DNA from: Dysosmobacter sp. Marseille-Q4140
GTDB lineage: Bacteria; Bacillota; Clostridia; Oscillospirales; Oscillospiraceae
DNA: 64,000 bases
Direction of reading: 5' to 3'
Assembly (NCBI GenBank): GCA_018228705.1
Contig: CP073694.1
Coordinates: 2,604,001-2,668,000, forward strand
Part shown: in pieces, positions 2,684 through 28,763 of the stretch
Numbering within the stretch: the first letter of the stretch is position 1
Layout of the letters: each line of letters begins with the position of its first letter
Position numbers and translations under genes: made by a program
The notes under the pieces: model-generated
Databases searched by the model: none
Seen by the model: only the letters and a program-made list of their open reading frames with translations
Told to the model about the DNA's origin: nothing

Positions 2684-3604
2684 TCAAAAAAAATGAAACA
2701 GACTTGCCAGGATAAGCATCCCGACCATACCCGCGAAAATGGATGCGGTTACCAAAAGTCCGGACCGCGCGATATCTCCTCCATAACGGCGGGTATTGAC
2801 AATTACCAGTCCAGAGATCGGGGAAATACACAACAGCGCCAAGACCTGCCGGGTCATCTGGTCAAATGGCAAAAAACAATACGTGCAGACCGCTGTGATC
2901 GCGCCGAAGCAAAAGCGCTGCACCAGCAAAGGTGCAATCTTTCGAATCTCAGCCCAATCAAGCCGCCCTTCCATGGAAAAGCCCACCATCGCCATGCAAA
3001 CAAAGCTGTTTGCATCCGCGACCGGGGACAAAAAGGTGTTCACAATGGCTGGCAAATGCCACTTGAACGCCAAAAAAGGGAGGAGAATCAAGTACGCCAC
3101 AAAGGGCGGCGAGCAAATCAGGTGTTTGATGAGATCCCTTAAAAAGCCCCGGGAATCCGACTTTCGATTCAGCAGCGAGCAAGTTAACGCATACGTCCCG
3201 CCGTTTACCATGACAGAATTCCCCAAATCGGCCATGCATGCAACAATTACACCGCTGTCCCCGTAAAAACAGCGGATAAGGGGCAGCGCAAAGCTGCCGA
3301 TGTTGTAGCCGGTGGTGTTCATCATGGCAAACATGCGCAGGTCTTCTCCGGATTTCAGGTACAGCAGAGAAAACAGCCCCAGAGACAACAGGGTGAATGT
3401 CAAAAACAGCAGGGCCGTCGACGCAAAGTGCATATTGGAGGAGTAATCCTGAAAGGAACAGAGAATGGTTGCGGGAATTGTAAAATTCAACGCAACCTTT
3501 GTAATCACGGTGCCGCTCTCCTCCGGGAAAATGCCGTGCCGCTTAAAATAACTAGTTAAGAGGATAATCGAAAAAAGGCTAATTGGACGCCAAAATAAAT
3601 CCAT
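2684..3604 (-). CDS. AEC-family (auxin efflux carrier-like) permease
   Basis: 306 residues, very hydrophobic, with about eight to ten membrane segments. The N-terminal RHGIFPEESGTVITKVALNFTIPATIL and the central NTTGYNIGSFALPLI are typical of AEC proteins, a membrane family that includes malate and other carboxylate carriers in bacteria. It lies between a terminator after tctA and the aldolase gene, so it may form a weakly read-through distal part of the operon. It could import a substrate or export an end product of the island pathway; direction and substrate are not visible. Confidence 0.82.
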   Translation of the reverse strand: MDLFWRPISLFSIILLTSYFKRHGIFPEESGTVITKVALNFTIPATILCSFQDYSSNMHFASTALLFLTFTLLSLGLFSLLYLKSGEDLRMFAMMNTTGYNIGSFALPLIRCFYGDSGVIVACMADLGNSVMVNGGTYALTCSLLNRKSDSRGFLRDLIKHLICSPPFVAYLILLPFLAFKWHLPAIVNTFLSPVADANSFVCMAMVGFSMEGRLDWAEIRKIAPLLVQRFCFGAITAVCTYCFLPFDQMTRQVLALLCISPISGLVIVNTRRYGGDIARSGLLVTASIFAGMVGMLILASLFHFF

Positions 3605-5773: not shown

Positions 5774-6802
5774 TTAGCCCGCGGCCTGATCGCCCAGGGC
5801 ATACACATAGTATTCATACTGGGTCTTCCAGTAATCGATCATCTCGTCAATGGTATCCAGAGGCTGGGGAGTCATATAGAACCCTTCCACCGCGGCGGCA
5901 TACTCATCGGATTTGCAGGCGGTGTTCAGCAGCTCATTCAAATAGGTCACAACCTCATCGGGAGTCCCGGCAGGAGCAGCAATGGTGATCCAAGAGTACA
6001 CGGCCATTTCAGCGGCCTCGTCAAACACCTCGCCCAAAGCAGGCACTTCAGGCATCGTGGGAGACTTCTCGTTGGCGGTCACGCCGATGATCTTCAGCTC
6101 ACCGGCCTCAACCTGGCCAGCGGCGGAAACGGCGGAGTTAATGGTCATATCCACCTGGCCGTTGACAACAGCCACCATGGCGTCGGCGGCAGAGTCAAAG
6201 GGAACCAGCTTCAGGGTGCAGTCAAAGTAATCCTGGAAGGTCAGGCAGGCAAGGCCGTTGCCGGTTCCGATTCCAGTAATGCCGATGCTCAGCGCCTCAG
6301 GGCCGGACTGCGCTACTTCCACCATATCCTCCAGGGACTGGATCTCAGAATCGCTGCGGACAATGATGGCATACGGCTCGTTCTGCGTGCGGCAGAGGGG
6401 AATGAAGGCCTCTTCGGCCACCATGTCGGTAACACCCAGCGCACGGTTCAGCGGGAGGTCGCAGGACATTGCAACCAGCGTATACCCGTCAGCCTTGGCG
6501 GTTGCCACCTGCTCGCAGCCAACCATACCGCCGCTGCCGGCGACGTTTTCCACGACGAAGTTCACTCCGCTGGGAAGGGACTTGCCCGCGATATCCAAGA
6601 GTGCGCGGGTGCTCAGGTCTGTCGTACCGCCTGCTCCATAGGGAACGACAACCGTGATATTTTCAGTCGGGGTCCACGCAGCAGTCTCTTCAGACGAATC
6701 CGTATCAGTGGAAGTGTCCGAAGATGTGGAGGAATCGCCGCAAGCGGACATGGTGAAGATCATAGCCAGAGCCAACATCAATGCGAAGAGCTTTCTTTTC
6801 AT
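5774..6802 (-). CDS. tctC: TctC: substrate-binding lipoprotein of the tripartite transporter
   Basis: About 342 residues. The N-terminus MKRKLFALMLALAMIFTMSACGD is a lipoprotein signal with the lipobox SAC, followed by a Ser/Thr/Asp-rich linker. The mature part has the TTT/Bug family features VVPYGAGGTTDLSTRALL, a Gly-rich VENVAGSGGMVGCEQVA and a C-terminal AAPAGTP. Bug proteins close around a carboxylate through two water molecules; some bind other small molecules. The start at 6802 is chosen because AAAGGAA precedes it and the signal peptide begins there; the in-frame ATG at 6841 would prepend a charged extension. It precedes tctB and tctA and follows the transaldolase. Confidence 0.9.
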   Translation of the reverse strand: MKRKLFALMLALAMIFTMSACGDSSTSSDTSTDTDSSEETAAWTPTENITVVVPYGAGGTTDLSTRALLDIAGKSLPSGVNFVVENVAGSGGMVGCEQVATAKADGYTLVAMSCDLPLNRALGVTDMVAEEAFIPLCRTQNEPYAIIVRSDSEIQSLEDMVEVAQSGPEALSIGITGIGTGNGLACLTFQDYFDCTLKLVPFDSAADAMVAVVNGQVDMTINSAVSAAGQVEAGELKIIGVTANEKSPTMPEVPALGEVFDEAAEMAVYSWITIAAPAGTPDEVVTYLNELLNTACKSDEYAAAVEGFYMTPQPLDTIDEMIDYWKTQYEYYVYALGDQAAG

Positions 6803-6876
6803 GATAAGGTTCCTTTCTCCTTTTTTATTTAAATAAACCAAAGCGGCTTATTTACGAAATGGACTGTATCTGCTTG

Positions 6877-7536
6877 TTAAAAGACGCCCCCGGCGTTCTT
6901 ATTGCTCCAAAGGTCCAAAAAGCTGTTGAGGGTCATATCGGTAACAGGGTTCTTCATCATGCCCATCAGGACGCCGTACGGAAGTGTCACGGAAGTGGCG
7001 CCGCAGCGAAGCGCCTTGGCTGCATCGTACCCGTTCCGCACAGAAGCCGCCAGAATTTCCGTTGGAATATTGTGGGAATTATACGATTGGGCAATCTTGG
7101 AAATCGTTTTGGTTCCGTCCATACCCACCTCGTTGGCGCGGGCGATGAAGGGCGCAATGTACTTGGCGCCGGCCTTAGCGGCAACAATGGCCTGGGGCTC
7201 GGAATAAACCAGAGTAATGGCGCAGTTGATGCCGTCTTTGGACAAGGCGGCGCAAGCCTGAATGCCCGCGGGCGTCATCGGCAGCTTGACAATCATCTGG
7301 GGGCCCCAGGAGGAAATCTCCTTCGCTTCCCGGATCATCTCAGCGGGCTGCGTGGCCAGCACCTCCGCAAAAACAATGGCCCCGCCCGTCAGAGAGACGA
7401 TATTTTGAACGCCTTCCTTGTAAGAGCCAGACTGCTTGGACAGCAGCGCCGGATTGGTCGTCACACCATCCATAATGCCCAGCTCAAAAGCCTGTTGAAT
7501 CTCGTCCAGATTCGCGGTGTCCAAAAAGAATTTCAT
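6877..7536 (-). CDS. Small transaldolase / fructose-6-phosphate aldolase family (copy 1, transaldolase-type residues)
   Basis: 219 residues, one (beta/alpha)8 domain of the TalC/FSA family. The Schiff-base lysine is K84 in MIVKLP. The N-terminal MKFFLDTANLDEI and GVTTNPALL are classic. At positions matching E. coli FsaA Gln59 and Tyr131 this copy has Glu (FAEVL, E58) and Phe (YIAPF), the residues found in true transaldolases. It therefore probably transfers a dihydroxyacetone unit or cleaves a related ketose phosphate, rather than acting as a standard FSA. It lies between the GRE activase and tctC. The GRE-activase-Fsa neighbourhood is also found in E. coli (ybiW-ybiY-fsaA). Confidence 0.9.
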   Translation of the reverse strand: MKFFLDTANLDEIQQAFELGIMDGVTTNPALLSKQSGSYKEGVQNIVSLTGGAIVFAEVLATQPAEMIREAKEISSWGPQMIVKLPMTPAGIQACAALSKDGINCAITLVYSEPQAIVAAKAGAKYIAPFIARANEVGMDGTKTISKIAQSYNSHNIPTEILAASVRNGYDAAKALRCGATSVTLPYGVLMGMMKNPVTDMTLNSFLDLWSNKNAGGVF

Positions 7537-7606
7537 AGCAAATCACCTTTCCTTTTTTGGGTTTTTAAGAAAATCGTTGCAGACGGACATCTGCCAAAAG
7601 CAGAGA

Positions 7607-8497
7607 TCATCCGCTGATGCAAACAGAGAATCCTGCCGCTTGCAGTGCCTGTTGGAGTTCTTGCGCGCAATCCTGGGCCTGTTCGCCCGGAATCGCAGCT
7701 CCTGGGTATGAGCGCCGGAGCAGTTCATACTTTTTCTCTCCAAAGGAATGGTAGGGAAGCAGCTCAATCTGTTGGGGCTGGCAGGCGCGGAAAAACGTAA
7801 TAAATGCGGATATGCTCTCCTGATCCGTATTGAAGCCGGGAATCACGGGAATCCGGACTGTGACATCCGCCTGTGTCGCAATCAGGCGCGACACATTTTC
7901 CAAAATCATTTCACAGGGAACCCCAGTGAATTCCTGATGCCGGTCGCTGCGCGGATTTTTTACATCGCACAAAAAGTGATCGATGTACGGGGCACAAGCA
8001 GCAATGGCTTTCCAGGGCGCATAGCACGTGGTCTCAATGCAGGTATCCAACCCCGCCTGCTTGCATAGGGTGAGGCACTCATGCAAAAACTCCGGCTGCG
8101 CGAAGGGCTCTCCCCCGGAGAATGTGACGCCGCCGCAGGTGGATTGGAAAACCGTGCGGTCCTTGAGGACCTCTTCCACCAATTCTGCCGCAGAAAGGCT
8201 GCGGCCCTTTTGCACAATGGCGGTTTTGGGACAGACCGCTTCACACTTTCCGCAAAGGCAGCACAGATCCGGCTGGTAGGTTTCGCAGGAGGGCGGCTGA
8301 TGCTGCGGGCAAACACTGACGCATGCGCCGCAGGCCATGCAGCGGTCCTTGCTGAACATCAGCTGCGGACCCGCCTGCTGGGATTCCGGGTTTGAGCACC
8401 AGATACAGTGCAGAGGGCATCCCTTCAGGAATACCGTTGTCCGAATACCCGGGCCGTCGTGAATACAGAAACGCTGGATATCAAAAATAACCCCCAT
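7607..8497 (-). CDS. Glycyl-radical enzyme activating enzyme (radical SAM)
   Basis: 296 residues. The radical SAM cluster motif is CPLHCIWC after GPGIRTTVFLKG, followed by SNPESQ. An inserted ferredoxin-like segment (about residues 50-95) has two 4Fe-4S motifs, CMACGACVSVCP and CCLCGKCEAVCP, which separates it from plain PFL-activase and places it with activases of other glycyl-radical enzymes. GGVTFSGGEPFAQPEF is the SAM-binding GGE region. It installs the glycyl radical on the GRE encoded 12 bp upstream. It is oxygen-sensitive and cytoplasmic. The ATG at 8497 is the only start that keeps FDIQRFCIHDGPG. Confidence 0.95.
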   Translation of the reverse strand: MGVIFDIQRFCIHDGPGIRTTVFLKGCPLHCIWCSNPESQQAGPQLMFSKDRCMACGACVSVCPQHQPPSCETYQPDLCCLCGKCEAVCPKTAIVQKGRSLSAAELVEEVLKDRTVFQSTCGGVTFSGGEPFAQPEFLHECLTLCKQAGLDTCIETTCYAPWKAIAACAPYIDHFLCDVKNPRSDRHQEFTGVPCEMILENVSRLIATQADVTVRIPVIPGFNTDQESISAFITFFRACQPQQIELLPYHSFGEKKYELLRRSYPGAAIPGEQAQDCAQELQQALQAAGFSVCISG

Positions 8498-8509
8498 AGA
8501 TACCTCACA

Positions 8510-10879
8510 TTATGCCAGATCCGCTTCGTAACGCTCGATAATCGAATTTTGGGCTTTGAGGGACAGTTCCACAAAAATGGCGCTGTATCCAGCAACCCGG
8601 ACGACCAAGCTCCGATATTCATCGGGATTTTCCTGCGCGGCCAGCAAAACGCGGTTGTCTACAATATTGAACTGCCAGTGGAAAGACCCGGAGGCCACAA
8701 ACGCCCGCAGCAGCTGTGCCATTTTCCGCCGCCCTTCCGGCGTCTTAAACAGGGTGCCGTTCATCCGCTGGTTGACAATGATGCCATTGGGGAACCGCTT
8801 TTGATGGATCTTGGCAAGCGTCGCCAGGACAGCCGTCGGTCCGCTGCGGTCCATTCCATACATGGGGGTGAGGCCGTCAGACAGCGGCAACCCCTCCAGC
8901 CGGCCATCCGGGGTAGCGCTGCAGACATTGCCAAGGCCCACCTGCGCGCTTACGGAGTACAGCGCTCCCCAGAACGCCCCGCCCCGGCCGTTGCGGTGTT
9001 TCTCCAATTCATCCGCAAATGCATCCGTGATCCCGACAGCCAGACGATCCACGCAGTCTTCGTCATTTCCGAATTTGGGGAAGCGGTTCATAATGAACTG
9101 CCGCAGATATTCCTGACCCGCGAAATTGCTGCGCAAAATCTCGGTCAGTGAATCCAACGTCATCTTCTTTTCATCGTAAACGAGCCGCTTGATGGCATAC
9201 AAAGAATCCGCAACCGTGGCGGTTCCCACAGCCACAAGGCCGGTGGTGTTGTACACGGCGCCTCCGTTGGTACAATCCAAACCTCTGGCGACGCAGTCAT
9301 CCAAGAAGAGGCTGACAAAGGGAAGCGGCAGAATCTCCCGGTGGATCTGGTCGCTTAGGAGGGACTCTTCAATCTGAAGCTGCTCCCCCACTTTGAGGCA
9401 ATGCAGATAGCGCTGATAGAAATCCTCAAAGGTGGCGGGCTGTTCCTTATCCAGCTCCAGAAGAGAAATTCCGTATTTAATATCCGTTCCGTGATTCATG
9501 GCGATTTCCAGCAGCTTGGCAAGGTTGATATACCCGCCGTTGCACCTGGCCCAGTGCCGGTGCACACTGATTTCATCGCAGCCCACCGGTATGTAATCCC
9601 GCGCCTCCCGCAGCGGGATGCCGTGTTCCACCAAAGAGGGAATGATGCAGTTGTCATTCAAAACCTGCGGCATTCCGTTGCCGCTTCCGATGCTCTCAAC
9701 CACTTTGGCCAGAAACTCTTCCGGTGTGTTTTCATGCAGCCGGACTGTAAAATTCGGCTGATTCAGACGAATATGGCGATTGGCCATCAGGCATACATAG
9801 GACAGGAGATTGGTGGCGTCATTGCCGTCGGCGTCTACGCCGCCTACCACCAAATTCTGTCCGGAGGCATAACCGGCATTTACCTCCGCGGCTCCCTTGC
9901 TGTCAACCCGCAGAATTTCGCAGAACTTCAGGAAAAACAGGTCCGTCAGCTCCTGTGCGTACTCCAGGGAGATGGTCCCCGCTTGGAGATCCTTTTCCAG
10001 GTAAGAATTGCAGTATTGATCAAATCTGCCCGGTGTAATGGAAAAACCATTGGATTCAATCTGGGGGATTACCTGCATCAGCCAAACGGTCTGGAGTGCC
10101 TCCTGGTAAGTGGCGGCAGGTTTCGCAGGGACATGATCCAGAACCTCTGCCATCGTCAGCAATTCCTGACGGCGCTCCGGATTCCTCTCCTGCAGGGCCT
10201 TCTCTCTGGACAAAGCGGCATATCTTCTGGCGATGGCCAGCATCCCCTGGCAGATCTCTTCCTCCGCCTGGTAAAAGGCCAGCTTGTCTTCATACATCGG
10301 GTCTTCCGGCTTCAGAGAACCCTTCGCAGCCGCGATTTGGGCCTGCATTCCTTCCACGCCGCACGTCAGAAGCTTGCGGTAATCCATAGCGACATGGGCA
10401 AATCCGCTCCACTCGTGGGGGTCTGAGAGCAGCCCCATGGCAAAACCCTGCCGGATGGCTTCGCTGCGCCGCTGCATCAGATAATCGTGCGGGCACTTCC
10501 CCTGCCAATAGGGCTCCAGCTCCAGGAGCGTCGCCTTTACCTCAGGGGAAACCTTCAAACGGTTATATTCCCGCGTTTCAAACAAATCGATTTCCTTCAT
10601 GAACTCGATGTTCACTTCCGGAAACACTTCCGCAGACCGTGGCTGGGAGGCGGGATGTCCTACAATCACCTCTCCGTCCTGAATGAAGATGCTCATTTCC
10701 TCCAGGGTCTTCCGCAGGGCCTTGGCCCGTTTCAAAACGGTGGGTAAAGACTCATTTTCTTGATAGACCTTTGTATAAATGACCGCGCGCTCACAGCACA
10801 TCTCCGGAGTTAAAGAGAGAAATTCATCCTTTAACTGTTTGACACGTTCCGTGGGGCTTTCAGGTAAGCAACCAATCAT
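8510..10879 (-). CDS. Glycyl-radical enzyme of the PFL/dehydratase/lyase superfamily (YbiW/PflD-like candidate)
   Basis: 789 residues. The glycyl-radical loop RVAGYSA near the C-terminus has the radical Gly at 764; the thiyl cysteine is Cys434 in IPVGCDE, with the acidic residue two positions later that marks dehydratase/C-O lyase-type members rather than pyruvate formate-lyase, which has two adjacent Cys. The residue between Cys and Glu is Asp, whereas the well-known dehydratases carry GCVE. An activase and an Fsa-family aldolase follow directly. In E. coli, GREs in this neighbourhood (YbiW, PflD) open 1,5-anhydrohexitol-6-phosphates to 1-deoxyfructose-6-phosphate. The same reaction here is an inference from context; other polyol or hydroxyacid substrates remain possible. 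It is the first gene of the leftward operon. Confidence 0.9.
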   Translation of the reverse strand: MIGCLPESPTERVKQLKDEFLSLTPEMCCERAVIYTKVYQENESLPTVLKRAKALRKTLEEMSIFIQDGEVIVGHPASQPRSAEVFPEVNIEFMKEIDLFETREYNRLKVSPEVKATLLELEPYWQGKCPHDYLMQRRSEAIRQGFAMGLLSDPHEWSGFAHVAMDYRKLLTCGVEGMQAQIAAAKGSLKPEDPMYEDKLAFYQAEEEICQGMLAIARRYAALSREKALQERNPERRQELLTMAEVLDHVPAKPAATYQEALQTVWLMQVIPQIESNGFSITPGRFDQYCNSYLEKDLQAGTISLEYAQELTDLFFLKFCEILRVDSKGAAEVNAGYASGQNLVVGGVDADGNDATNLLSYVCLMANRHIRLNQPNFTVRLHENTPEEFLAKVVESIGSGNGMPQVLNDNCIIPSLVEHGIPLREARDYIPVGCDEISVHRHWARCNGGYINLAKLLEIAMNHGTDIKYGISLLELDKEQPATFEDFYQRYLHCLKVGEQLQIEESLLSDQIHREILPLPFVSLFLDDCVARGLDCTNGGAVYNTTGLVAVGTATVADSLYAIKRLVYDEKKMTLDSLTEILRSNFAGQEYLRQFIMNRFPKFGNDEDCVDRLAVGITDAFADELEKHRNGRGGAFWGALYSVSAQVGLGNVCSATPDGRLEGLPLSDGLTPMYGMDRSGPTAVLATLAKIHQKRFPNGIIVNQRMNGTLFKTPEGRRKMAQLLRAFVASGSFHWQFNIVDNRVLLAAQENPDEYRSLVVRVAGYSAIFVELSLKAQNSIIERYEADLA

Positions 10880-10925
10880 GTCAGCAATCCCTCTTTCCTA
10901 TTGATTGGATTTCAAACACATATCT

Positions 10926-11187
10926 ATAACATTTAGATGTTATAAATGAAAACAATCATAACGTTCGTTATAATATTGATATCATAGAACATAAAAAAGG
11001 TCAAGGAAAATATCCTTCTTGCGTTCTGCTTTCTCTGATAAATTTTTAAAAAATTTTTTGTAAAAAACGCCAAATATTATGCAAAAAGTAGTAACATTGA
11101 AAAAACTTCTTTAAAAACGCTTGACTTTTCATTTCTTAAATGATAACGTTTTATATAACATTTATAACACGTAATAGTTATAATGTT
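10926..11187 (+). promoter_or_regulatory. Divergent promoters and ATAAC/GTTAT operators of the GRE and dehydrogenase operons
   Basis: AT-rich control region. Leftward promoter: TTGACC (minus strand, 11004-10999), 17-bp spacer, TATCAA (10981-10976). Just downstream lie two inverted repeats, ATAACG-TT-CGTTAT (10958-10971) and ATAACAT-TTAG-ATGTTAT (10926-10943). On the rightward side TTGACT (11121-11126) is a likely -35 with a poor -10. ATAACG recurs at 11143-11148, and a longer repeat AACATTTATAAC (11157-11168) / GTTATAATGTT (11177-11187) follows. The placement at the start sites suggests repression, most simply by the DeoR protein encoded at 18359. Confidence 0.65.
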
Positions 11188-11215
11188 AATCACTGTGGTA
11201 AATGGAGGCTAAAAC

Positions 11216-12451
11216 ATGGCGACAGCAGTCATTATGCCAAGGCAAGGGCAGTCCGTAGAGAGCTGTCTGTTTGGCGAATGGAAAAAGGCAGTTGGTGATC
11301 CCGTCGAAATCGGGGACGTATTGTTCTCTTACGAGACGGACAAGGCCACCTTTGAGGAAGAAGCAAAAACAGCGGGCATTCTCCTGGCAACGCTGTGCGA
11401 ACCCGGAGATGATATTCCCTGCTTGGATACCGTCGCGGTAATCGGCGAGCAGGGGGAAGATATCTCCGCATTTTTAAACAAAAAAGAAGCGGATTCTTCG
11501 CAAGCGCAAAATTCCCCTGCCCCCCCGCCGGCAACGCCTGCCTCCGCAGCCACGCCCGAACGCCAATCGGCCGCCTCTTCCATAACCGGTATTTCTCCCC
11601 GCGCGCGGGCAACCGCAGAGAGGATTCACGTAGATCCCGCCGCGGCCGTACCCACCGGGCCCCACGGAAGGATTTTGGAGCGCGATATCCTGATGGCGCC
11701 CCGCACTGGCTCCTGTGAGCCGGAGCCCGTCCAAACGGCCGCGGAAGTTCCTTCCGCAGGTTACCGCGATGAGCCCCTGCCCAACATCCGCAAGCTGATT
11801 GCCTCATCCATGCAGAAATCGCTTAGCACATCGGCTCAGCTGACGCATCACACATCTTTTGATGCCAGTGAGATCATTGCGTACCGCAAGAAGCTCAAGG
11901 GTGCGCAGGAAACGCTGGGCCTGCCGTCTATTACATACAATGATATGGTCCTTTTTGCGGTTTCCCGGGTTCTGAAAAATCATCCCGCGCTCAACGCCCA
12001 CTTCCTGGGGGACAAAATCCGGTATTTCGACCACGTGCACCTGGGCATGGCGGTGGACACGCCCCGCGGCCTGATCGTGCCCACGATTTTTAATGCCGAC
12101 TGCAAATCTCTCAGCGAAATCGCAAAAGAGAGCAAGGAGCTGGCCGCGGCAGCGCAGAGCGGCTCCATCAATCCCGACCTCCTCACAGGCGCCAGCTTCA
12201 CGGTGTCCAATTTGGGGACCCTGGATATCGAGATGTTCACGCCGATCATCAACCCGCCGCAAACGGGGATTTTGGGCGTGGACTGCATCACAGACCGCGT
12301 CCGGGTTGTGGACGGCCAGATTACCGCGTATCCGGCCATGGGATTGTCTCTGACATATGACCACCGTGCTCTGGACGGCGCTCCTGCGTCTCGTTTCCTC
12401 AAGGAGCTGAAGACGGTCCTGGAGCAGTTCACAGAGCTGCTGGCAAAATAA
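11216..12451 (+). CDS. Dihydrolipoamide acyltransferase (E2) of an acetoin/2-oxoacid dehydrogenase-like complex
   Basis: 411 residues. Residues 1-78 are a lipoyl domain with the lipoyl lysine K43 in ETDKATF. An Ala/Pro-rich linker leads to a peripheral-subunit-binding domain around 122-158 (ISPRARATAERIHV, then GPHGRILERDI). The catalytic domain ends with the HxxxDG active site at 383-388 (DHRALDG). It transfers the acyl group made by E1 to CoA. It is the first gene of the rightward operon, in the order E2-E3-E1. The ATG at 11216 follows AATGGAGG. It has the one lipoyl domain typical of acetoin and many 2-oxoacid complexes. Confidence 0.93.
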   Translation: MATAVIMPRQGQSVESCLFGEWKKAVGDPVEIGDVLFSYETDKATFEEEAKTAGILLATLCEPGDDIPCLDTVAVIGEQGEDISAFLNKKEADSSQAQNSPAPPPATPASAATPERQSAASSITGISPRARATAERIHVDPAAAVPTGPHGRILERDILMAPRTGSCEPEPVQTAAEVPSAGYRDEPLPNIRKLIASSMQKSLSTSAQLTHHTSFDASEIIAYRKKLKGAQETLGLPSITYNDMVLFAVSRVLKNHPALNAHFLGDKIRYFDHVHLGMAVDTPRGLIVPTIFNADCKSLSEIAKESKELAAAAQSGSINPDLLTGASFTVSNLGTLDIEMFTPIINPPQTGILGVDCITDRVRVVDGQITAYPAMGLSLTYDHRALDGAPASRFLKELKTVLEQFTELLAK

Positions 12452-12466
12452 AAGGGGAGGATAGAC

Positions 12467-13834
12467 GTGTATTACGATCTAATCGTGCTGGGCGGCGGCC
12501 CAGGCGGATATTTGGCGGCGGAGAGAGCCGGGCAAGCCGGGTTAAAAACCCTTTGCATCGAGGATCAGCACATGGGCGGCACCTGCCTCAACGAGGGCTG
12601 CATTCCCACCAAGGCCATGCTGCACAGCGCAAAGTTATATGCCCACGCGGTGGGCAGCGCCTGTTACGGCGTCTCCGCCGAACACGTTCAGGTGGACCAC
12701 AGCGCCGTCATTGAGCGCAAGGAGCGGGTGATCCAGACCCTGGTCAGCGGAGTGCGCTCCGCGATGAAAGCCTGCAAAGTGGAAGTGGTGTCCGGTCGCG
12801 GCGTAATTACAGGCGCCGTTCCGGAAGGGTACGAAGTTCAAGTCGATCAGAGCCGGTTCACCGCCAAGAACTTGATCATTGCCACAGGCTCTGTCAGCGT
12901 ATCTCCCCCCATCGAAGGGCTGCAGGAGTCTTTGGCGTCCGGATTTGCCGTTACGAACCGGGAACTGCTCTCGACCAAGCAAGCGCCGAAGCGGCTGGTG
13001 GTGGTAGGCGGAGGCGTCATCGGCCTGGAGATGGCCTCCTACTACCAGATGACAGGCAGCGACGTCACGGTGGTGGAAATGCTGGATCATATTGCCGGTC
13101 CCTGCGACAAGGATCTGGTCCAGCTGCTGCAGAAGAACTACGTCCGGGACGGCATGAAATTCGAGCTGAATGCCCGCGTCAACGCCATCAAAGATGGAAA
13201 AGTCGTATGTCAGCGCGGGGAAGAGACCTTTGAATTGGAGACCGACTTGGTTTTGGTGGCTCTGGGACGGCGGCCAAACAGCTCCGGTATCGGGCTGGAA
13301 AATATCGGCGTCTTTGTGGAACACGGTGCCGTGCGGACGGACAACCAAATGCGCACCAATCTCCCGGGCGTCTATGCCGTGGGCGATGTAAACGGAAAAT
13401 ATATGCTTGCCCACACCGCCTATCGGGAAGCAGAAGTCGCCGTCCACACCATCTTGGGCGAAAAGGACACCATGAGTTACCGGGCCATCCCCAGCGTTCT
13501 CTACACAGTCCCCGAGCTCTCCAGCGTGGGTCTGACCGAAGAAGAAGCAAAGGCGCAGGGCCTGGATGTGGCGGTTGTCAAAATCCCCATGGCATACAGC
13601 GGCCGCTATGTGGCGGAGAACGAAAAGGGAGACGGCATTTTTAAGCTGGTAATTGACCGGAAACTGCGTACAATCGTAGGCGCGCAGGCTTTCGCCAATT
13701 ATTCCTCCGAATTCATCGCAATCATCGGCGTGTTTATTGAGTTGGCTGTTCCAATAGACTTGGTGAAAAAGCAGGTTTTCCCGCATCCCACTGTAGCAGA
13801 GATCATCCGAGAAGCCGCTTGTCAGTTTAATTAA
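12467..13834 (+). CDS. Dihydrolipoamide dehydrogenase (E3)
   Basis: 455 residues, full-length flavoprotein disulfide reductase. The FAD motif GGGPGGYLAA begins at residue 9, the redox pair is C40/C45 in GGTCLNEGCIPTK, the NAD motif is VVVGGGVIGLEMA, the FAD-binding YAVGDV lies near 310, and the C-terminal HPTVAE provides the catalytic His-Glu. It reoxidises the lipoyl group of E2 with NAD+. The start is GTG at 12467 with AGGGGAGG upstream, 15 bp after the E2 stop. Confidence 0.95.
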   Translation: MYYDLIVLGGGPGGYLAAERAGQAGLKTLCIEDQHMGGTCLNEGCIPTKAMLHSAKLYAHAVGSACYGVSAEHVQVDHSAVIERKERVIQTLVSGVRSAMKACKVEVVSGRGVITGAVPEGYEVQVDQSRFTAKNLIIATGSVSVSPPIEGLQESLASGFAVTNRELLSTKQAPKRLVVVGGGVIGLEMASYYQMTGSDVTVVEMLDHIAGPCDKDLVQLLQKNYVRDGMKFELNARVNAIKDGKVVCQRGEETFELETDLVLVALGRRPNSSGIGLENIGVFVEHGAVRTDNQMRTNLPGVYAVGDVNGKYMLAHTAYREAEVAVHTILGEKDTMSYRAIPSVLYTVPELSSVGLTEEEAKAQGLDVAVVKIPMAYSGRYVAENEKGDGIFKLVIDRKLRTIVGAQAFANYSSEFIAIIGVFIELAVPIDLVKKQVFPHPTVAEIIREAACQFN

Positions 13835-13864
13835 GTTTGAAGAAAGGGAAAGGAAAATACGGCC

Positions 13865-16330
13865 ATGTCCAAGCAAATTCTGATTGATCCTCGCGTTCTG
13901 CGCGCTTCCGGGACAATTCATTTTGACGATATTCCAGTCAACCAGTACAAAAAAGAAGTAAAGGACGAAGTTGGGAATTTTACCAAGAGCCAGTTTATGA
14001 ACATCTACCGGGACATGTGCTACATCCGGGAGTTCGAAACCATGCTCAACCTGATCAAGACCACCAGCGAGTATCAGGGTGTCGCCTATACGCACCCGGG
14101 CCCCGCGCACCTGGGAATCGGTCAGGAAGCCGCCTACGTCGGCCAGGCTTTCTGCCTCAATGAAGATGACTTCAGCTTCGGCTCTCACCGCAGCCACGGC
14201 GAAATTCTCGCCAGAGGACTCCACGCGGTAGAGACCATGGACGCGGGCAAACTGGACAAAATCATGACCACCTTCGCCGGCGGAAGAATCCGCAACGTGG
14301 TGGATGACGGAAAGAAGGACCTGCGCACTTTGGGCCGGGACTTCCTGCTCTACGGCATGATCTGTGAGACCTTCGGCCGTAAAAACGGCTTCAACAGCGG
14401 CCTGGGCGGCAGCATGCACGCCTTCTTCACCCCCTTCGGCATCTACCCCAACAACGCCATCGTGGGCGGCTCCGGCTCCATTGCCCCGGGCGCGGCCCTG
14501 TACAAGCTGAGCAACAAAAAGCCCGGCATCGTGGTCTGCAACATCGGCGACGCGGCCACGGCCTGCGGCCCCGTCTGGGAGGGCATGGTATTCAGCAGCA
14601 TGGACCAGTACCGCACCCTGTGGGGCAAGGACGGCGGCGGCATGCCCATCATCTTCAACATCTGGAACAACAGCTACGGCATGGGCGGCCAGACCAACGG
14701 CGAAACCATGGGCTATCAAATGCCCGCCCGGATCGGCGCGGCGCTCAATCCCCTGCAGATGCACGCTGAGCGGGTGGACGGCTACAATCCCCTGGCCGTC
14801 ATCGACGCGTACCGCCGCAAAAAGGAAGTCGCCAAGAAGGACGGCCCCGTCCTCCTGGAGGTGGTCACCTACCGCATCTCCGGCCACTCCCCCTCCGACT
14901 CCAGCAGCTACCGCACCAAAGAGGAAATCGCCCTCTGGGAGGCCGAGGACTCCATCAAGGAATACGGCCGGCAGCTGATCGACGCCGGTATCTGCGCGCA
15001 GAAAGACCTGGATGCCATTTGGGAGATGGTGCGGGCCGACATGCTGCGCAATATGAAACTGGGTATCGACGAGACCATCTCTCCCAGGCTGGATGTATTT
15101 GGAACGGAGCGCAACGCCATTGGCGATCTGATGTTCTCCAACCAGCACATCCGCAGCATGGACACCACCCGTCCCGCTGACGTCACCCTCCCCTATGAAG
15201 AGGGCCCCCGGGCCATTGCCTTTGCCAAAAAAGAGCGGAAGGGCCTGGACGCGGACGGCAAGCCCGTCTCCAAGAACAAGGTCTTTCAGATGCGCGACGC
15301 CATTGCCGAGCCCATGCTCAAGAAATTCTACGAGGACCCCACCATGGTCCTCTTCGGAGAGGATGTGCGGGACTGGGGCGGTTCCTATGCCGTGACCCGC
15401 GGCTTCACGGAGGCCATCCCCTACCACCGCTTCTTCAACACCGCCATCGCGGAAGCGGGCATTGTGGGCGCCGCTATCGGCTACGCCATGAGCGGCGGCC
15501 GGGCCGTTGCCGAGATCATGTACTGCGACTTCCTGGGGCGGGCCGGCGATGAGCTGTTCAATCAGCTCTCCAAATGGCAGAGCATGAGCGCGGGAGAACT
15601 GAAAATGCCCGTCATCGTGCGCATGAGCGTGGGGTCCAAATACGGCGCCCAGCACTCCCAGGACTGGTCCGCGCTGTGCGCCCACATCCCGGGGCTGAAG
15701 GTGGTGTTCCCGGCAACACCGTATGATGCCAAGGGCATGATGCAATCCGCCCTGAACGGCACCGACCCGGTCATCTTCCTGGAGAGCCAGCGGATTTACG
15801 ACATTGGGGAGCAGTTCCATCCGGAGGGCGTGCCTGAGGAGGAGTACGAGATCCCCCTGGGCGAGCCGGACGTGAAGCGGGTCGGCTCTGATGTCACGAT
15901 CCTCTCCATCGGCGCCACCCTCTACCGGGCCATGGACGCCGCCAAAATCCTCCAGGAGCAGTACGGGGTCTCCGCCGAGGTCATCGACGCCCGCTCCCTG
16001 GTTCCCTTTGACTATGATCCCGTCATCGCCTCCATCCATAAGACCGGCCGAATCGTAATTACGGGAGACGCCTGCGAGCGGAATTCCTTCATGCGGAACT
16101 TGGCCTCCAACATCGCGGAACTGGCCTTTGATGATCTGGACGCGCCGCCCGTGGTGGTCGGCTCCAAAAACTGGATTACGCCGGCCCACGAACTGGAAAA
16201 GGCGTTCTTCCCCCAGCCCGAGTGGATTGTCGATGCGATCCACCAGCGGATTCTGCCGCTGCCCGGCCATGTCTGCACCCGCAACTTCACGGAACTGGAG
16301 CAGATCCGGGAGAACCGTCTGGGCATCTAA
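13865..16330 (+). CDS. Fused E1 alpha-beta subunit, thiamine-diphosphate dehydrogenase (acetoin dehydrogenase-like)
   Basis: 821 residues, about the sum of separate alpha (~330) and beta (~330) subunits plus a linker near 440-480. The alpha half has the TPP motif from G228-D229 (GDAATACG, then WNNSYGM) and GGSMHAFF. The beta half has LFGEDVRDWGGSYAVTRGF, FNTAIAEAGIVGAAIGYA and SKYGAQHSQDW, with a C-terminal VVGSKNW region. Thiamine attacks a carbonyl; the resulting acyl group goes to E2. The substrate is unknown: acetoin-type ketols fit the family, and 1-deoxyketose phosphates share the same CH3-CO-CHOH head group. ATG at 13865; 30 bp after E3. Confidence 0.88.
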   Translation: MSKQILIDPRVLRASGTIHFDDIPVNQYKKEVKDEVGNFTKSQFMNIYRDMCYIREFETMLNLIKTTSEYQGVAYTHPGPAHLGIGQEAAYVGQAFCLNEDDFSFGSHRSHGEILARGLHAVETMDAGKLDKIMTTFAGGRIRNVVDDGKKDLRTLGRDFLLYGMICETFGRKNGFNSGLGGSMHAFFTPFGIYPNNAIVGGSGSIAPGAALYKLSNKKPGIVVCNIGDAATACGPVWEGMVFSSMDQYRTLWGKDGGGMPIIFNIWNNSYGMGGQTNGETMGYQMPARIGAALNPLQMHAERVDGYNPLAVIDAYRRKKEVAKKDGPVLLEVVTYRISGHSPSDSSSYRTKEEIALWEAEDSIKEYGRQLIDAGICAQKDLDAIWEMVRADMLRNMKLGIDETISPRLDVFGTERNAIGDLMFSNQHIRSMDTTRPADVTLPYEEGPRAIAFAKKERKGLDADGKPVSKNKVFQMRDAIAEPMLKKFYEDPTMVLFGEDVRDWGGSYAVTRGFTEAIPYHRFFNTAIAEAGIVGAAIGYAMSGGRAVAEIMYCDFLGRAGDELFNQLSKWQSMSAGELKMPVIVRMSVGSKYGAQHSQDWSALCAHIPGLKVVFPATPYDAKGMMQSALNGTDPVIFLESQRIYDIGEQFHPEGVPEEEYEIPLGEPDVKRVGSDVTILSIGATLYRAMDAAKILQEQYGVSAEVIDARSLVPFDYDPVIASIHKTGRIVITGDACERNSFMRNLASNIAELAFDDLDAPPVVVGSKNWITPAHELEKAFFPQPEWIVDAIHQRILPLPGHVCTRNFTELEQIRENRLGI

Positions 16331-16499
16331 CCGCCCAGCGGCCGGTCTCGTCCGCGGGAAGGAAGCCTTGCGGCAAGCGGAGGGCGGATCGCTTTCCGCG
16401 CTCTGAGCCGCATCCGTCAAGGTATGCAGTCTTTCACAGGCAATGCAGCCCTTGGAGAGGGGCTATAAAAACTACTACTCTCACTCAAAGGAGCGCACT

Positions 16500-17189
16500 A
16501 TGGAACTGTACTTAAATGAAGAACGGGCAGACGTCATTGCAAAATACCTGGATCTCTACCCCATCGACGGAATCACCACCAATCCCAAAATGATCGGAAG
16601 CCTGGGAAAAGTTCCCTACGAGGAAACCCTGCGGAACCTGCGGAAGGTCGTGGGCGGCAAGAAGCTGTTCACGCAGGTCACCGCCGAGACGTATGAGGAC
16701 ATTCTGCTTGAGGCGGAATACATCTGCTCCATCGCAGGCCGGAACACCTACATCAAGGTCCCCGCAAACGAAGTGGGCATCAAAGCGCTGAAAACCCTGC
16801 ATGAACAGGGCTACCACACTTTGGGAACGCTTTGCTTCACCACCATTCAGGCGATGATGGCGCTGCAGGCCGGTGCGGATTACGTGGCGGTTTTGTACAA
16901 TTATATGGTAAACGCGGGCTATGACGCCTCAAAGACGCTGAAGGACATTGCCGCCTATATTCGCGAGAGCGGCTGCCACGGGAAACTCATGGGCGTCGGT
17001 GTCCGCAGCCACCAGCAGTTCAGCGACTGCGCCGGCTGCGGCTGCCAGGCAATCAATCTCAATGCCGATAACATCACTGAGTGGATGCAGAACGAGCCGT
17101 CCGTGACCACCACCAGAGACTTCCTCAATGGTTGGGAGGCCACCTGGGGTCCCGGAGCAAAGATAAAGGACTTTATCAGCAAACCGTAA
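16500..17189 (+). CDS. Fructose-6-phosphate aldolase / transaldolase family (copy 2, FSA-like)
   Basis: 229 residues. Schiff-base lysine K86 in TYIKVPANEVG; N-terminal MELYLNEERADV resembles the FsaA start. It keeps Gln at the FsaA Gln59 position (LFTQV) but has Leu near the Tyr131 position (DYVAVLYNY), so it is neither a textbook FSA nor a textbook transaldolase. An FSA would cleave fructose-6-phosphate-like or 1-deoxyfructose-6-phosphate substrates without a bisphosphate. The start is the ATG at 16500 after AAGGAG; the in-frame ATG at 16443 lacks a ribosome site. It is 169 bp after the E1 gene in the same direction. Confidence 0.88.
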   Translation: MELYLNEERADVIAKYLDLYPIDGITTNPKMIGSLGKVPYEETLRNLRKVVGGKKLFTQVTAETYEDILLEAEYICSIAGRNTYIKVPANEVGIKALKTLHEQGYHTLGTLCFTTIQAMMALQAGADYVAVLYNYMVNAGYDASKTLKDIAAYIRESGCHGKLMGVGVRSHQQFSDCAGCGCQAINLNADNITEWMQNEPSVTTTRDFLNGWEATWGPGAKIKDFISKP

Positions 17190-17202
17190 TCATCGCCCAA
17201 AG

Positions 17203-17236
17203 AGCAAAGCCCCCGGTCCACGCCGGAGGCTTTGCT
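17203..17236 (+). terminator. Hairpin after FSA copy 2 (weak terminator/attenuator)
   Basis: GAGCAAAGCC-type sequence (17202-17210) pairs with GGCTTTGCTC (17228-17237) through a GC-rich inner stem. There is no T-run after it, so termination is probably partial. It separates the E2-E3-E1-FSA message from the kinase promoter. Confidence 0.45.
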
Positions 17237-17290
17237 CACCATTGCAAGAAAAACAACTGCTAAAATTTACAAAATTGTGAAAATTTCATT

Positions 17291-17332
17291 TGACGGTTGA
17301 GCGGCTTTTGTGTTAACATTTTTGTTATGTTC
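17291..17332 (+). promoter_or_regulatory. Promoter and half-site operator of the PfkB kinase-DeoR pair
   Basis: TTGACG (17291-17296), 17-bp spacer, TTAACA (17314-17319). AACAT (17316-17320) and ATGTT (17328-17332) form an inverted repeat over the -10 and start region and resemble the AACAT/ATGTT arms of the main operators at 10.9-11.2 kb, suggesting DeoR autoregulation. Confidence 0.5.
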
Positions 17333-17362
17333 AGGAGTTTGCTCAAGGCAGAGGGGTAACGT

Positions 17363-18319
17363 ATGTTTGACATTTTATGTATTGGAGAAACAGCCGTTGA
17401 TATTATCTGCAAACCGGTGTCCGAGTGTCTTTTTTCCAATGTCTGCAGCCCGGTGGAGAGCATTTCAATTCAGTCGGGCGGAGATGCCTTAAACAACGCC
17501 GTGGACCTTGCCAAGCTGGGAAATCAGGTTTGTTATGTTGGCCGAATCGGATTGGACGCCGGCGGGGAGTTTGTTCTGGGAGCGCTCCAGAACGCAGGCG
17601 TAGATGTCTCCCACGTAGTGCGCACCGATTGCCCCCATGCGAAAGTGAATCTCTTAATCAAGCCTGACGGCAACCGGGCTTTTTTCTATTACGGAGGAAC
17701 CAGCCGGGAATTTTCCGCATCTGATGTGGACCCTGCCCTGTTGTCCTCGTGCAAAATTTTACAGGTGGGCGGCACGTTCCACTTGCCGGCATTCGACGGG
17801 GCGGGCGCCGCAGAATTGTTTCAAGCCGCCCAAAAGGCCGGGGTATTGACGTCTATGGACGTTACAAATGATTTCACCGGACGGTGGAATGAAATTATTT
17901 CCCCGTGCTATCCCCATTTGGACTACTTCCTCCCCAGCATCGACCAGGCCAAGCTCATCAGCGGATACCAGGACCCCAGGGATATCGCGGCTTTCTTCCT
18001 GGACCGCGGCGTTAAACACGTGGCGATCAAGCTGGGCGCCGAGGGCAGCTTCTACCAGTCGGGGAACAAGGCGTTTTTCTGCGGAACGTATCACGTCCCC
18101 GTGGTAGAAACCACCGGCGCGGGAGACGCCTTCTGCGCGGGGTTCCTGACCGCTCTTGTGCGCAACTGCTCTCCGGAGGAATGCGTATTGACCGCAACAG
18201 CAGCGTCAGCGCAGGTGATACAGGCCGTGGGCGCCAACACGGGCATGTGTTCCTACGCGCAGCTGCAGGCATTTATCCGGGAAAACCAGCCGCCAGAAAT
18301 TCATTATGTAACGGATTAA
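17363..18319 (+). CDS. PfkB-family carbohydrate kinase
   Basis: 318 residues of the ribokinase fold. N-terminal FDILCIGETAVDIICKP, the SGGDALNNAVDLAKLG substrate loop, GRIGLDAGGEFVLGAL, and the anion-hole/catalytic motif TTGAGDAFCAGF with the base Asp255. It transfers phosphate from ATP to a sugar or sugar derivative in the cytoplasm. In this island it is the obvious candidate to phosphorylate the incoming substrate before the GRE or aldolase step. The specificity (fructose, anhydrosugar or sugar acid) is not determinable from sequence. It is 40 bp upstream of the DeoR regulator, likely one transcript. Confidence 0.92.
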   Translation: MFDILCIGETAVDIICKPVSECLFSNVCSPVESISIQSGGDALNNAVDLAKLGNQVCYVGRIGLDAGGEFVLGALQNAGVDVSHVVRTDCPHAKVNLLIKPDGNRAFFYYGGTSREFSASDVDPALLSSCKILQVGGTFHLPAFDGAGAAELFQAAQKAGVLTSMDVTNDFTGRWNEIISPCYPHLDYFLPSIDQAKLISGYQDPRDIAAFFLDRGVKHVAIKLGAEGSFYQSGNKAFFCGTYHVPVVETTGAGDAFCAGFLTALVRNCSPEECVLTATAASAQVIQAVGANTGMCSYAQLQAFIRENQPPEIHYVTD

Positions 18320-18358
18320 AAATTCTAATCAAGGCCAAGCAATAAGGGATAGACGAGT

Positions 18359-19210
18359 ATGAATGAGAGACAGTCTAAAATTTTATATTTCATTGAGAGC
18401 AAGGGCAGCGTGCAGATCAAGGAGCTGCAGGAGCTTGTGTCGGACTATACGCCCATGACGCTATGGCGTGACTTGGCCAAATTAGAGGAACTGGGTTACA
18501 TCCGCCGTTACCGCGGAGGCGCTTCCGCAATCCGAAACCAGTTTACAGAACAGGAGCAGTCCTTTTTCTACCGGCTGAAAAAAAATGTCTACGAAAAAGA
18601 AGAGATTTCAAGGATTGCCGTGGGATTGCTGAATTCCTACCACGCCCTCTACCTGGACGGCGGAAGCACAACGTATTCGTTGGCCAAACGGCTGCCGGAC
18701 GGGCATTTTACCATCATCACCAGCGGAGCCAATATCGCGGTAGAGCTCTCCCAGCGAAATGGATACAACGTAAATTTACTGGGCGGCCAGGTGATCGGCA
18801 CGACCCTGGCTTGTTCAGGGCCTCAGGCAGAGGACATGCTCGGCAGCATGAATGTTGATGTAGCGGTGCTGTCCACATCTGGTTTTTCCCTGGAAAACGG
18901 ATTCGCCAGCGGATATCTCAGTGAAGCGCATTTGAAAAAACGCGTCATTGAAAAAGCCTCTTCCTGCGTGATCATGCTGATGGATAAAGGCAAAATCGGA
19001 AAAGTCCAGCCGTTTACTTTCGGCCGTCCCAACGACATCGATGTCTTGATTACGGATGAAGAGCTTCCACAAAACGTCATGGAAGAGATGGGGAAACATC
19101 ACGTAAAGGTGTTTTTTCCAAAAGATGGTTACGAGGAACAGGAGCGAAGGGCCTGGCTGGAGGAATTTTTGTCTACGCAAAAGAGGTATTCCCGTTCCGG
19201 CACCAATTGA
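18359..19210 (+). CDS. DeoR-family transcriptional regulator of the island
   Basis: 283 residues. Residues 1-55 are the DeoR winged helix (RQSKILYFIESKGSVQIKELQELV, then TPMTLWRDLAKLEELGYIRRYRGGA). The rest is the sugar-phosphate-sensing domain of the family, with YLDGGSTTYSLAKRL, ITSGANIAVEL, LLGGQVIG and an MDKGKIGK segment near the end, where ISOCOT-fold proteins bind phosphorylated sugars. It is cotranscribed with the PfkB kinase, so its inducer is probably that kinase's product or a later intermediate. The ATAAC/GTTAT palindromes at 10.9-11.2, 17.3 and 19.4 kb are candidate sites. Confidence 0.92.
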   Translation: MNERQSKILYFIESKGSVQIKELQELVSDYTPMTLWRDLAKLEELGYIRRYRGGASAIRNQFTEQEQSFFYRLKKNVYEKEEISRIAVGLLNSYHALYLDGGSTTYSLAKRLPDGHFTIITSGANIAVELSQRNGYNVNLLGGQVIGTTLACSGPQAEDMLGSMNVDVAVLSTSGFSLENGFASGYLSEAHLKKRVIEKASSCVIMLMDKGKIGKVQPFTFGRPNDIDVLITDEELPQNVMEEMGKHHVKVFFPKDGYEEQERRAWLEEFLSTQKRYSRSGTN

Positions 19211-26829: not shown

Positions 26830-26909
26830 TCACGGCACCTCCTCTCGAATGGAATTGATTTTGCAAGCAGAACATATCACAGGCATCTGTGAATAGCCAT
26901 GAAAAGAAC

Positions 26910-27086
26910 TCAGTTCTGATTCGATTCTACAAAACCAACAATCTGCGCCTGCGGTTTTGTGAAGGGATTGTCCACGACAAGATAGTCGTGGATCAGCATT
27001 TTCAAAAATGCGTCAAATTGTGTATCGTTCCCCACATAGGAATACATGACACTGGATAGTTCGGGTTTTGTCGTTCTCTTTCCCAT
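26910..27086 (-). CDS. Small hypothetical protein of the mobile element
   Basis: 58 residues from the ATG at 27086, which has AAAGGAG just upstream; an in-frame ATG at 27122 lacks a ribosome site. The sequence is acidic-hydrophobic without cysteine motifs (contains SVMYSYVGNDTQFDAFLKM and DYLVVDNPFTKP). It lies between the relaxase and recombinase genes with the same orientation, so it may take part in transfer or excision control. Not recognised. Confidence 0.6.
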   Translation of the reverse strand: MGKRTTKPELSSVMYSYVGNDTQFDAFLKMLIHDYLVVDNPFTKPQAQIVGFVESNQN

Positions 27087-27129
27087 AGGCTCCTTTCCGC
27101 CCAATTCGGGCTGTGTTGACATGCAGAGA

Positions 27130-28748: not shown

Positions 28749-28763
28749 GCGGCACCTCCGTTC

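What the first reader, a model, noticed from the sequence alone, without database searches (positions are those of the whole stretch)
6877..19210. GRE-activase-FSA island coupled to an acetoin-dehydrogenase-like complex
The gene set GRE + ferredoxin-type activase + Fsa-family aldolase matches the E. coli YbiW/PflD route, in which anhydrohexitol-6-phosphate is opened to 1-deoxyfructose-6-phosphate and cleaved by Fsa. Here it is joined, under shared operators, to an E1/E2/E3 complex whose family cleaves acetoin-type ketols. 1-Deoxyfructose-6-phosphate carries the same CH3-CO-CHOH head group as acetoin, so the complex could split it to acetyl-CoA and erythrose-4-phosphate, which the transaldolase could use. 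This would be a new, redox-yielding branch. The GRE and enzyme-family assignments are seen in sequence; the substrate link is hypothesis.
Basis: partly seen in the sequence, partly recalled or inferred. Interest (0 to 1): 0.8.

Follow-up and report, generated by a model that had tools for sequence, protein, structure and literature searches.

The report
Radical enzyme paired with ketol-cleaving complex
A bacterium carries a radical enzyme of unknown substrate next to, and probably controlled together with, an acetoin-dehydrogenase-like complex whose relatives often sit among sugar-breakdown genes, which suggests but does not prove a route from a sugar-like compound straight to acetyl-CoA.

Summary
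The genes are real and correctly placed: a glycyl radical enzyme (GRE) with activase and a small transaldolase/FSA-family protein on the minus strand, divergent from E2-E3-E1 (one-chain E1), a second FSA-like protein, PfkB kinase and DeoR regulator. The AT-rich 336-bp gap carries paired palindromes. The GRE is not a YbiW or PflD ortholog: it forms its own well-supported clade (motif GCDE), scores closer to diol dehydratases, and has TctABC here and TRAP transporters in three of five related loci. Its substrate is open. The E1 half gained support: this one-chain E1 is common (71 of 391 Clostridia genomes, 38 of 294 of the Planctomycetota sample), often in loci with DeoR/SorC regulators, sorbitol-6-phosphate-dehydrogenase-like SDRs and rhamnulokinases; only the window pairs it with a GRE among 67 loci read. 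Acetoin dehydrogenase is cited as forming 1-deoxyketoses. Best reading: the GRE makes a methyl ketone and the complex cleaves CH3-CO-CHOH-R to acetyl-CoA plus a shorter aldehyde. 1-Deoxyfructose-6-phosphate itself is unproven. A published prediction gives a related complex to lactaldehyde, so a C3 substrate is a live rival.

The parts
8510..10879 (-). glycyl radical enzyme, GCDE clade (Cys434, Glu436, glycyl loop RVAGYSA)
   Evidence: predicted fold pLDDT 92.5 matches diol dehydratases best
7607..8497 (-). GRE activase, radical SAM with ferredoxin-type domain
   Evidence: TIGR02494 340.5 vs cut-off 174.35 bits; Fer4
6877..7536 (-). small transaldolase/FSA-family protein; Lys85, Asp6, Arg134, Ser166 kept, Tyr131 replaced by Phe
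   Evidence: (224.9 bits, below cut-off 245.95)
5774..6841 (-). TctC-type solute-binding protein
   Evidence: PF03401
5215..5679 (-). TctB-like small permease (by position and length only)
   Evidence: no NCBIfam hit; not scanned with Pfam
3672..5198 (-). TctA-like large permease (my reading of the sequence and its place beside TctC)
   Evidence: no NCBIfam hit; not scanned with Pfam
2684..3604 (-). AEC-type membrane transporter
   Evidence: PF03547
1823..2665 (-). class II ketose-bisphosphate aldolase family
   Evidence: TIGR00167 251.4 vs cut-off 215.6
10880..11215 (.). divergent AT-rich control region with palindromes at 10926-10944 and 11163-11181
11216..12451 (+). E2: lipoyl, E3-binding and CAT-type acyltransferase domains
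   Evidence: PF00364, PF02817, PF00198
12467..13834 (+). E3 dihydrolipoyl dehydrogenase
   Evidence: TIGR01350 459.1 vs cut-off 408.8
13865..16330 (+). E1, alpha and beta parts in one 821-aa chain, thiamine-diphosphate dependent by family
   Evidence: PF00676, PF02779, PF02780; family alignments
16443..17189 (+). FSA-like protein; catalytic Lys kept, phosphate-site residues replaced (R134Y, S166G; also D6N, Y131L)
17363..18319 (+). PfkB-family sugar kinase
   Evidence: PF00294
18359..19210 (+). DeoR-family regulator
   Evidence: PF00455, PF08220
19497..20582 (+). mannose-6-phosphate-isomerase-like cupin protein, possibly part of the locus
   Evidence: TIGR00218 74.1 bits, below cut-off 116.2; 286-bp gap

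Best explanation
A catabolic island for an imported, probably anionic, sugar-like or polyol-like compound. Step 1 (inferred): the GRE takes a hydrogen from a carbinol carbon and expels the group on the neighbouring terminal carbon, giving a methyl ketone CH3-CO-CHOH-R (1-deoxyketose type). Step 2 (inferred): the kinase phosphorylates this compound or a product. Step 3 (inferred): the E1 binds the ketone on thiamine diphosphate, releases the shorter aldehyde R-CHO, and passes the acetyl unit through E2 to CoA, with E3 making NADH. Step 4 (inferred): the small transaldolase and the aldolase return the shorter aldose (phosphate) to central metabolism. What is shown: the genes, their motifs, two divergent operons with a paired-palindrome control region, and the frequent sugar-locus setting of the E1 family elsewhere. 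What is not shown: any substrate.
For: One-chain E1 loci often carry sugar genes. Within 9 kb of E1, 54 of 67 loci have a DeoR/SorC regulator, 26 a sorbitol-6-phosphate-dehydrogenase-like SDR (>=39% id), 25 an IolM-like zinc dehydrogenase (>=25%), 14 a PHP-type protein and 7 a rhamnulokinase-like kinase (>=44%). In 75 control loci of other GREs (whole loci, mean 17.7 kb) the counts are DeoR 9, SDR 0, zinc dehydrogenase 1, PHP 0, kinase 1, E1 0. The closest fetched E1 (74% id, L171) sits with zinc dehydrogenase, PHP protein, DeoR and an SDR that passes the sorbitol-6-phosphate dehydrogenase cut-off (371 vs 307 bits). Such an SDR acting beside the methyl of a 6-deoxyhexitol phosphate would also make CH3-CO-CHOH-R (inference). 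Four plasmid loci (rhizobia and kin) pair this E1 with a lipoyl protein, an alpha/beta hydrolase (annotated acoC in one record) and sugar transporters, with kinases in or near them. Acetoin dehydrogenase is cited, by title, as forming 1-deoxyketoses. A fused E1 is present in G001, G002 and G202, the three genomes with GREs of >=58% identity, against base rates of 71/391 and 38/294. The window E1 clade includes P0010 and P0016, whose longest contigs match in length those of GREs P0135 and P0143.
Against: No substrate is known for any member I found. 37 of 67 E1 loci lack all of SDR >=39%, zinc dehydrogenase >=60%, kinase >=44% and PHP protein, and only the window has a GRE near E1 (1 of 67). 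The E1s of G001, G002 and G202 lie outside the window's E1 clade, and fused E1 also occurs in 5 of 20 searched genomes with other GREs, so genome-level co-occurrence is weak. In G202 GRE and E1 lie millions of bases apart, and the GRE locus has a split transketolase instead. G005 and G023, with GREs of 49-52%, lack the fused E1 (drafts, may be incomplete). L030 (52% GRE) has shikimate-type and glutaryl-CoA dehydrogenase genes, not sugar genes, among the four neighbours annotated. No NCBIfam model calls the window's E1/E2 acetoin-type; the best hits are PDH-like and below cut-off. Published inference gives a related complex to lactaldehyde.
Confidence: 0.4

Rival explanations
1. C3-fragment reading: an aldolase/FSA first releases hydroxyacetone or lactaldehyde, and the E1/E2/E3 complex oxidises that C3 deoxy fragment to an acyl-CoA.
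For: PMC8579813 (passages) assigns Athe_0702-4, a three-subunit acetoin-dehydrogenase homolog in a DeoR-regulated rhamnose cluster, to the last step of rhamnose (lactaldehyde) use. Class II aldolases lie within 9 kb in 5 of 67 E1 loci. FSA with 1-deoxyfructose-6-phosphate would give hydroxyacetone.
Against: 62 of 67 E1 loci have no such aldolase within 9 kb. The window FSA has the transaldolase-like Phe (meaning recalled). Acetoin-type cleavage of hydroxyacetone would release formaldehyde.
Confidence: 0.23
2. One reading: TctABC/AEC import an anhydrohexitol, PfkB makes the 6-phosphate, the GRE opens it to 1-deoxyfructose-6-phosphate, and E1 gives acetyl-CoA and erythrose-4-phosphate for the transaldolase.
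For: GRE + activase + FSA-family gene set as in E. coli; kinase present; Phe131 suits use of erythrose-4-phosphate (inference).
Against: GRE outside the YbiW and PflD clades, a pocket residue differs from both, no PTS among the island's genes; TctABC here and TRAP in L001, L005, L170 suit anions better than a neutral anhydrohexitol (recalled). In G012 a PflD-like GRE (61% id to PflD) lies on another contig than the fused E1.
Confidence: 0.1
3. Ordinary neighbours: the complex is a pyruvate or branched-chain 2-oxoacid dehydrogenase that happens to lie beside a GRE diol dehydratase.
For: Best E1/E2 family hits are PDH-type; beta-part PDB hits are 2-oxoacid E1s; some relatives are named 2-oxoisovalerate dehydrogenase E1; only 1 of 67 E1 loci has a GRE near.
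Against: E1 family members sit with DeoR/SorC regulators in 54 of 67 loci and with sugar kinases, dehydrogenases or transporters in many; paired palindromes before both operons.
Confidence: 0.13

Closest known systems
E. coli YbiW/PflD radical pathway (1,5-anhydroglucitol- and 1,5-anhydromannitol-6-phosphate to 1-deoxyfructose-6-phosphate; passage in PMC12441222, PDB titles 8id7, 8id0)
   Same: GRE + activase + FSA-family protein; catalytic Cys and Glu kept
   Different: GRE in a separate clade, 35-36% identical; GCDE motif; TctABC not PTS; Phe at FsaA Tyr131; added E1/E2/E3 complex
B12-independent glycerol and 1,2-propanediol dehydratases (PDB 1r8w, 9rcp, 5i2g)
   Same: best fold and profile matches; His162 aligned with the conserved His (active-site role recalled)
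   Different: Asp of these enzymes replaced by Asn447, the His before Ser by Phe279; own clade; sugar-type neighbours
Acetoin dehydrogenase complex (AcoA/B/C/L)
   Same: E1/E2/E3 make-up; four plasmid-borne relatives carry a lipoyl + alpha/beta-hydrolase pair
   Different: E1 in one chain; CAT-type E2 in the window; sugar-locus setting; no acetoin-specific family hit above cut-off
Caldicellulosiruptor bescii Athe_0702-4 (PMC8579813, passages)
   Same: three genes, acetoin-dehydrogenase homolog, DeoR-regulated sugar cluster
   Different: rhamnose cluster, no GRE mentioned in the passages; sequence not compared here; lactaldehyde role proposed there

Membership tests
PFL2/dehydratase-type glycyl radical enzymes | subfamily profile score, catalytic Cys, glycyl loop, cognate activase | tested here: met
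   704.7 vs 678.2 bits, Cys434, RVAGYSA, activase 340.5 bits
YbiW/PflD anhydrohexitol-6-phosphate lyases | falls in the YbiW or PflD clade | tested here: not met
   separate clade, local support 100, in FastTree of 104 rows; PRK09983 (PflD) 556 vs cut-off 1109
YbiW/PflD anhydrohexitol-6-phosphate lyases | sugar-phosphate-binding residues of 8id7/8id0 | not testable with these tools
   no coordinates of ligand contacts available; only chosen columns compared
YbiW/PflD anhydrohexitol-6-phosphate lyases | acts on 1,5-anhydrohexitol 6-phosphates | not testable with these tools
   needs enzyme assay
Acetoin dehydrogenase complex | intact E1, lipoyl E2 and E3 genes in one operon | tested here: met
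Acetoin dehydrogenase complex | acetoin-type rather than 2-oxoacid-type E1/E2 by sequence | tested here: inconclusive
   PDH-type models score best, all below cut-off; acetoin E2 model 55 vs 307
Acetoin dehydrogenase complex | acetoin cleavage activity | not testable with these tools
   needs enzyme assay
Fructose-6-phosphate aldolase (FSA) | equivalog score and Tyr131 | tested here: not met
   224.9 vs 245.95; Phe at that column

The most novel reading that the evidence does not exclude
The one-chain E1 complexes found here in Clostridia, Planctomycetota, Chloroflexota and rhizobia form a family of acetyl-CoA-forming 1-deoxyketose (phosphate) dehydrogenases. Their methyl-ketol substrates are made either by oxidation of 6-deoxysugar derivatives (loci with the sorbitol-6-phosphate-dehydrogenase-like SDR and zinc dehydrogenase) or, in the window's lineage, by a new clade of glycyl radical enzymes.
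Probability: 0.3. Interest if true: 0.8.

Novelty: new variant of a known kind. Interest (0 to 1): 0.57.

Why it matters
If right, it gives a function to a common but unassigned dehydrogenase complex (71 of 391 sampled Clostridia genomes), adds a GRE clade with no known substrate, and shows a fermentation route that yields acetyl-CoA and NADH directly from deoxyketoses. It would also tell where carbon from deoxysugars and anhydro- or modified sugars goes in anaerobes.

Tried and rejected
Rejected: the GRE as a YbiW or PflD ortholog (tree). Rejected: L117 as an anhydrohexitol/PTS locus. Its FSA lies near an E1, but the neighbours scanned are phosphoglucomutase-like, acetate-transporter-like and ProA, with no PtsA or GldA hit; in the same genome a PflD-like GRE (61% id to PflD) lies on another contig with no E1 label in the 19.9-kb stretch read (L259). 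Led nowhere: viral-contig scans with GRE and E1; family of G327 searched for the GRE, 0 of 32; paper searches for 1-deoxy-D-fructose 6-phosphate (0 papers) and acetoin dehydrogenase + rhamnulokinase (0); listings without a use here. Searches gave the three papers of which I saw passages (PMC12441222, PMC3424233, PMC8579813); PMC3870299 was looked up from a citation and has no 'acetoin' (passages). The PHP-type protein gave no NCBIfam hit (1e-10 or 1e-15) and no Pfam hit (1e-5); it is called PHP from its HxH and DHD motifs and a weak 3e0f match (E 0.028). The E1 structure job had not finished when last asked. The first gene calls (28, 29) wrongly took a long antisense ORF over E1/E3 and were replaced. 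The GRE alignment used 35 of the 120 listed hits plus the window. The 15-kb cut in the contig-length test was picked after seeing the matches; without it, chance gives two or more matches in 8% of trials. The confidence of the best explanation was lowered from 0.42 to 0.40, and that of the ordinary-neighbours rival raised from 0.12 to 0.13, on rereading and after the recount.
Full report
Observation. The minus-strand set is longer than stated: GRE, activase, FSA-family protein, TctC, TctB, TctA, an AEC-type permease and a class II ketose-bisphosphate aldolase, with gaps of 12 to 94 bp. The plus-strand set is E2, E3, E1, an FSA-like protein, a PfkB kinase and a DeoR regulator; a mannose-6-phosphate-isomerase-like gene follows after 286 bp. 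The 336-bp gap between the two sets is 26% GC against 57% for the window. It holds a perfect 19-bp palindrome before the GRE and a 3-mismatch copy before E2. These are the only sites of the pattern in the window, with 0.01 expected by chance; the pattern was taken from the first site, so only the second is independent. Shared control is likely but untested.

Neighbours of related GREs. GREs of at least 49% identity were found in five genomes: L001/G001, L002 and L237/G002, L005/G005, L030/G023 and L170/G202 (4 of the 80 kept loci). G202 is probably Petroclostridium, as its contig length equals that of P0166. TRAP transporters precede the GRE in L001, L005 and L170. L001 also has an FSA-family protein and a PfkB kinase. 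L170 has transaldolase-like, ribose-5-phosphate-isomerase-B-like, split transketolase-like, SDR and DeoR genes. L030 has neither: the four of its genes scanned are DAHP synthase, AroB, glutaryl-CoA dehydrogenase and lysyl-tRNA ligase. The G002 contigs are too short to tell. TRAP and Tct systems mostly carry anions (recalled), which speaks against a neutral anhydrohexitol. The fused E1 occurs in G001, G002 and G202 but not in G005 and G023. It also occurs in 5 of the 20 other GRE-bearing genomes searched (G007, G008, G012, G017, G022), and the E1s of G001, G002 and G202 lie outside the window's E1 clade. Genome-level co-occurrence is thus weak evidence.

The E1 family. The search for the 821-residue one-chain E1 filled its list of 7998 candidates, which may include other E1 types. 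It was found at E <= 1e-180 in 71 of 391 Clostridia genomes and 38 of 294 genomes of the Planctomycetota sample. In the same samples a GRE of at least 50% identity was found in 1 of 391 and 1 of 294 (the seed genome G002 itself). So the complex did not arise for the GRE. In 67 chosen loci E2 is near in 59 and E3 in 57, a DeoR or SorC regulator in 54, and a GRE in 1, the window. An SDR of the sorbitol-6-phosphate dehydrogenase type is near in 26, an IolM-like zinc dehydrogenase in 25, a PHP-type protein in 14 and a rhamnulokinase-like kinase in 7; 37 of 67 have none of the four, counting the zinc dehydrogenase at 60% identity or more. L193 also has L-rhamnose isomerase. In 75 loci of other GREs these markers occur 0, 1, 0 and 1 times, DeoR 9 times and E1 0 times. 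Many loci are from related genomes, so the counts are not independent. On four plasmids of rhizobia and kin the E1 is followed by a lipoyl-domain protein and an alpha/beta hydrolase, the two halves of an AcoC-type E2 (recalled), near sugar kinases and sugar transporters; two have a psicose-epimerase-like protein. In the E1 tree the window falls in a 10-row clade whose sister clade holds L171, with the SDR, zinc dehydrogenase, PHP-type protein and DeoR. P0010 and P0016 of the window's clade have longest contigs of the same length as GREs P0135 and P0143, which hints at E1-GRE pairs elsewhere.

Chemistry. A sorbitol-6-phosphate-dehydrogenase-like SDR working next to the methyl group of a 6-deoxyhexitol phosphate would give the same CH3-CO-CHOH-R head group that a GRE can give from a terminal diol, ether, amine or sulfonate. 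That common head group is the best link between the two kinds of locus (inference).

The small aldolases. The minus-strand protein keeps Lys85, Asp6, Arg134 and Ser166 but has Phe for Tyr131, as does L001. The plus-strand protein keeps Lys but has Tyr, Gly, Asn and Leu for Arg134, Ser166, Asp6 and Tyr131. As I recall, Phe marks transaldolases. If so, the first enzyme would use, not release, an aldose phosphate, which fits a tetrose phosphate made by E1 better than release of hydroxyacetone.

Rivals. PMC8579813 (passages) proposes that a three-subunit acetoin-dehydrogenase homolog in a DeoR-regulated rhamnose cluster handles lactaldehyde. I did not compare its sequence. This C3 reading could also hold here through hydroxyacetone. 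An ordinary 2-oxoacid dehydrogenase remains possible, since the best family models are PDH-type.

Verdict. In the ten searches made (an open-licence library, mostly listings) I found no description of this pairing; the JACS 2024 paper on the YbiW/PflD route is not held.

Noticed in passing
L175, L177, L180, L181, L193, L171, L243, L251, L120 (E1 loci): Recurrent set of fused E1 with E2 (E3 in all but L120), sorbitol-6-phosphate-dehydrogenase-like SDR, IolM-like zinc dehydrogenase and, in part of them, rhamnulokinase-like kinase and a PHP-type protein, across Clostridia, Planctomycetota and Chloroflexota: a possible unassigned deoxysugar pathway.
   Followed up: partly
L214, L215, L216, L217 (plasmids of rhizobia and kin): Fused E1 next to a split AcoC-like E2 (lipoyl protein plus alpha/beta hydrolase) and sugar transporters; L214 and L217 also have a carbohydrate kinase in the same run of genes; substrate not assigned.
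   Followed up: partly
L007 9887-16986 (Christensenella): Related GRE (40% id, GCIE motif) with sugar ABC transporter, DhaK, a DhaL-RpiB fusion and two SDRs; looks like polyol use. A fused E1 lies about 20 kb away (L115).
   Followed up: partly
G546: One genome of the order of G001 carries four GREs of 42-44% identity to the window's GRE.
   Followed up: no
window 12635-16420 (-): A 1261-aa antisense ORF runs over E3 and E1; probably an effect of codon usage, not a gene.
   Followed up: no
window 23852-29930: A large serine recombinase ORF (25159-26829) with a similar ORF beside it (23852-25162, not scanned), a MobA/VirD2-like relaxase and an AAA protein: a mobile element just beyond the island.
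   Followed up: partly
window 16443-17189: FSA-like protein that keeps the Schiff-base Lys but has lost the usual phosphate-binding residues; substrate probably not a phosphate at that end.
   Followed up: partly
L184 and L260: Split transketolase-like genes next to (L184) or about 12 kb from (L260, G249) a fused E1, as also beside the GRE in L170.
   Followed up: no
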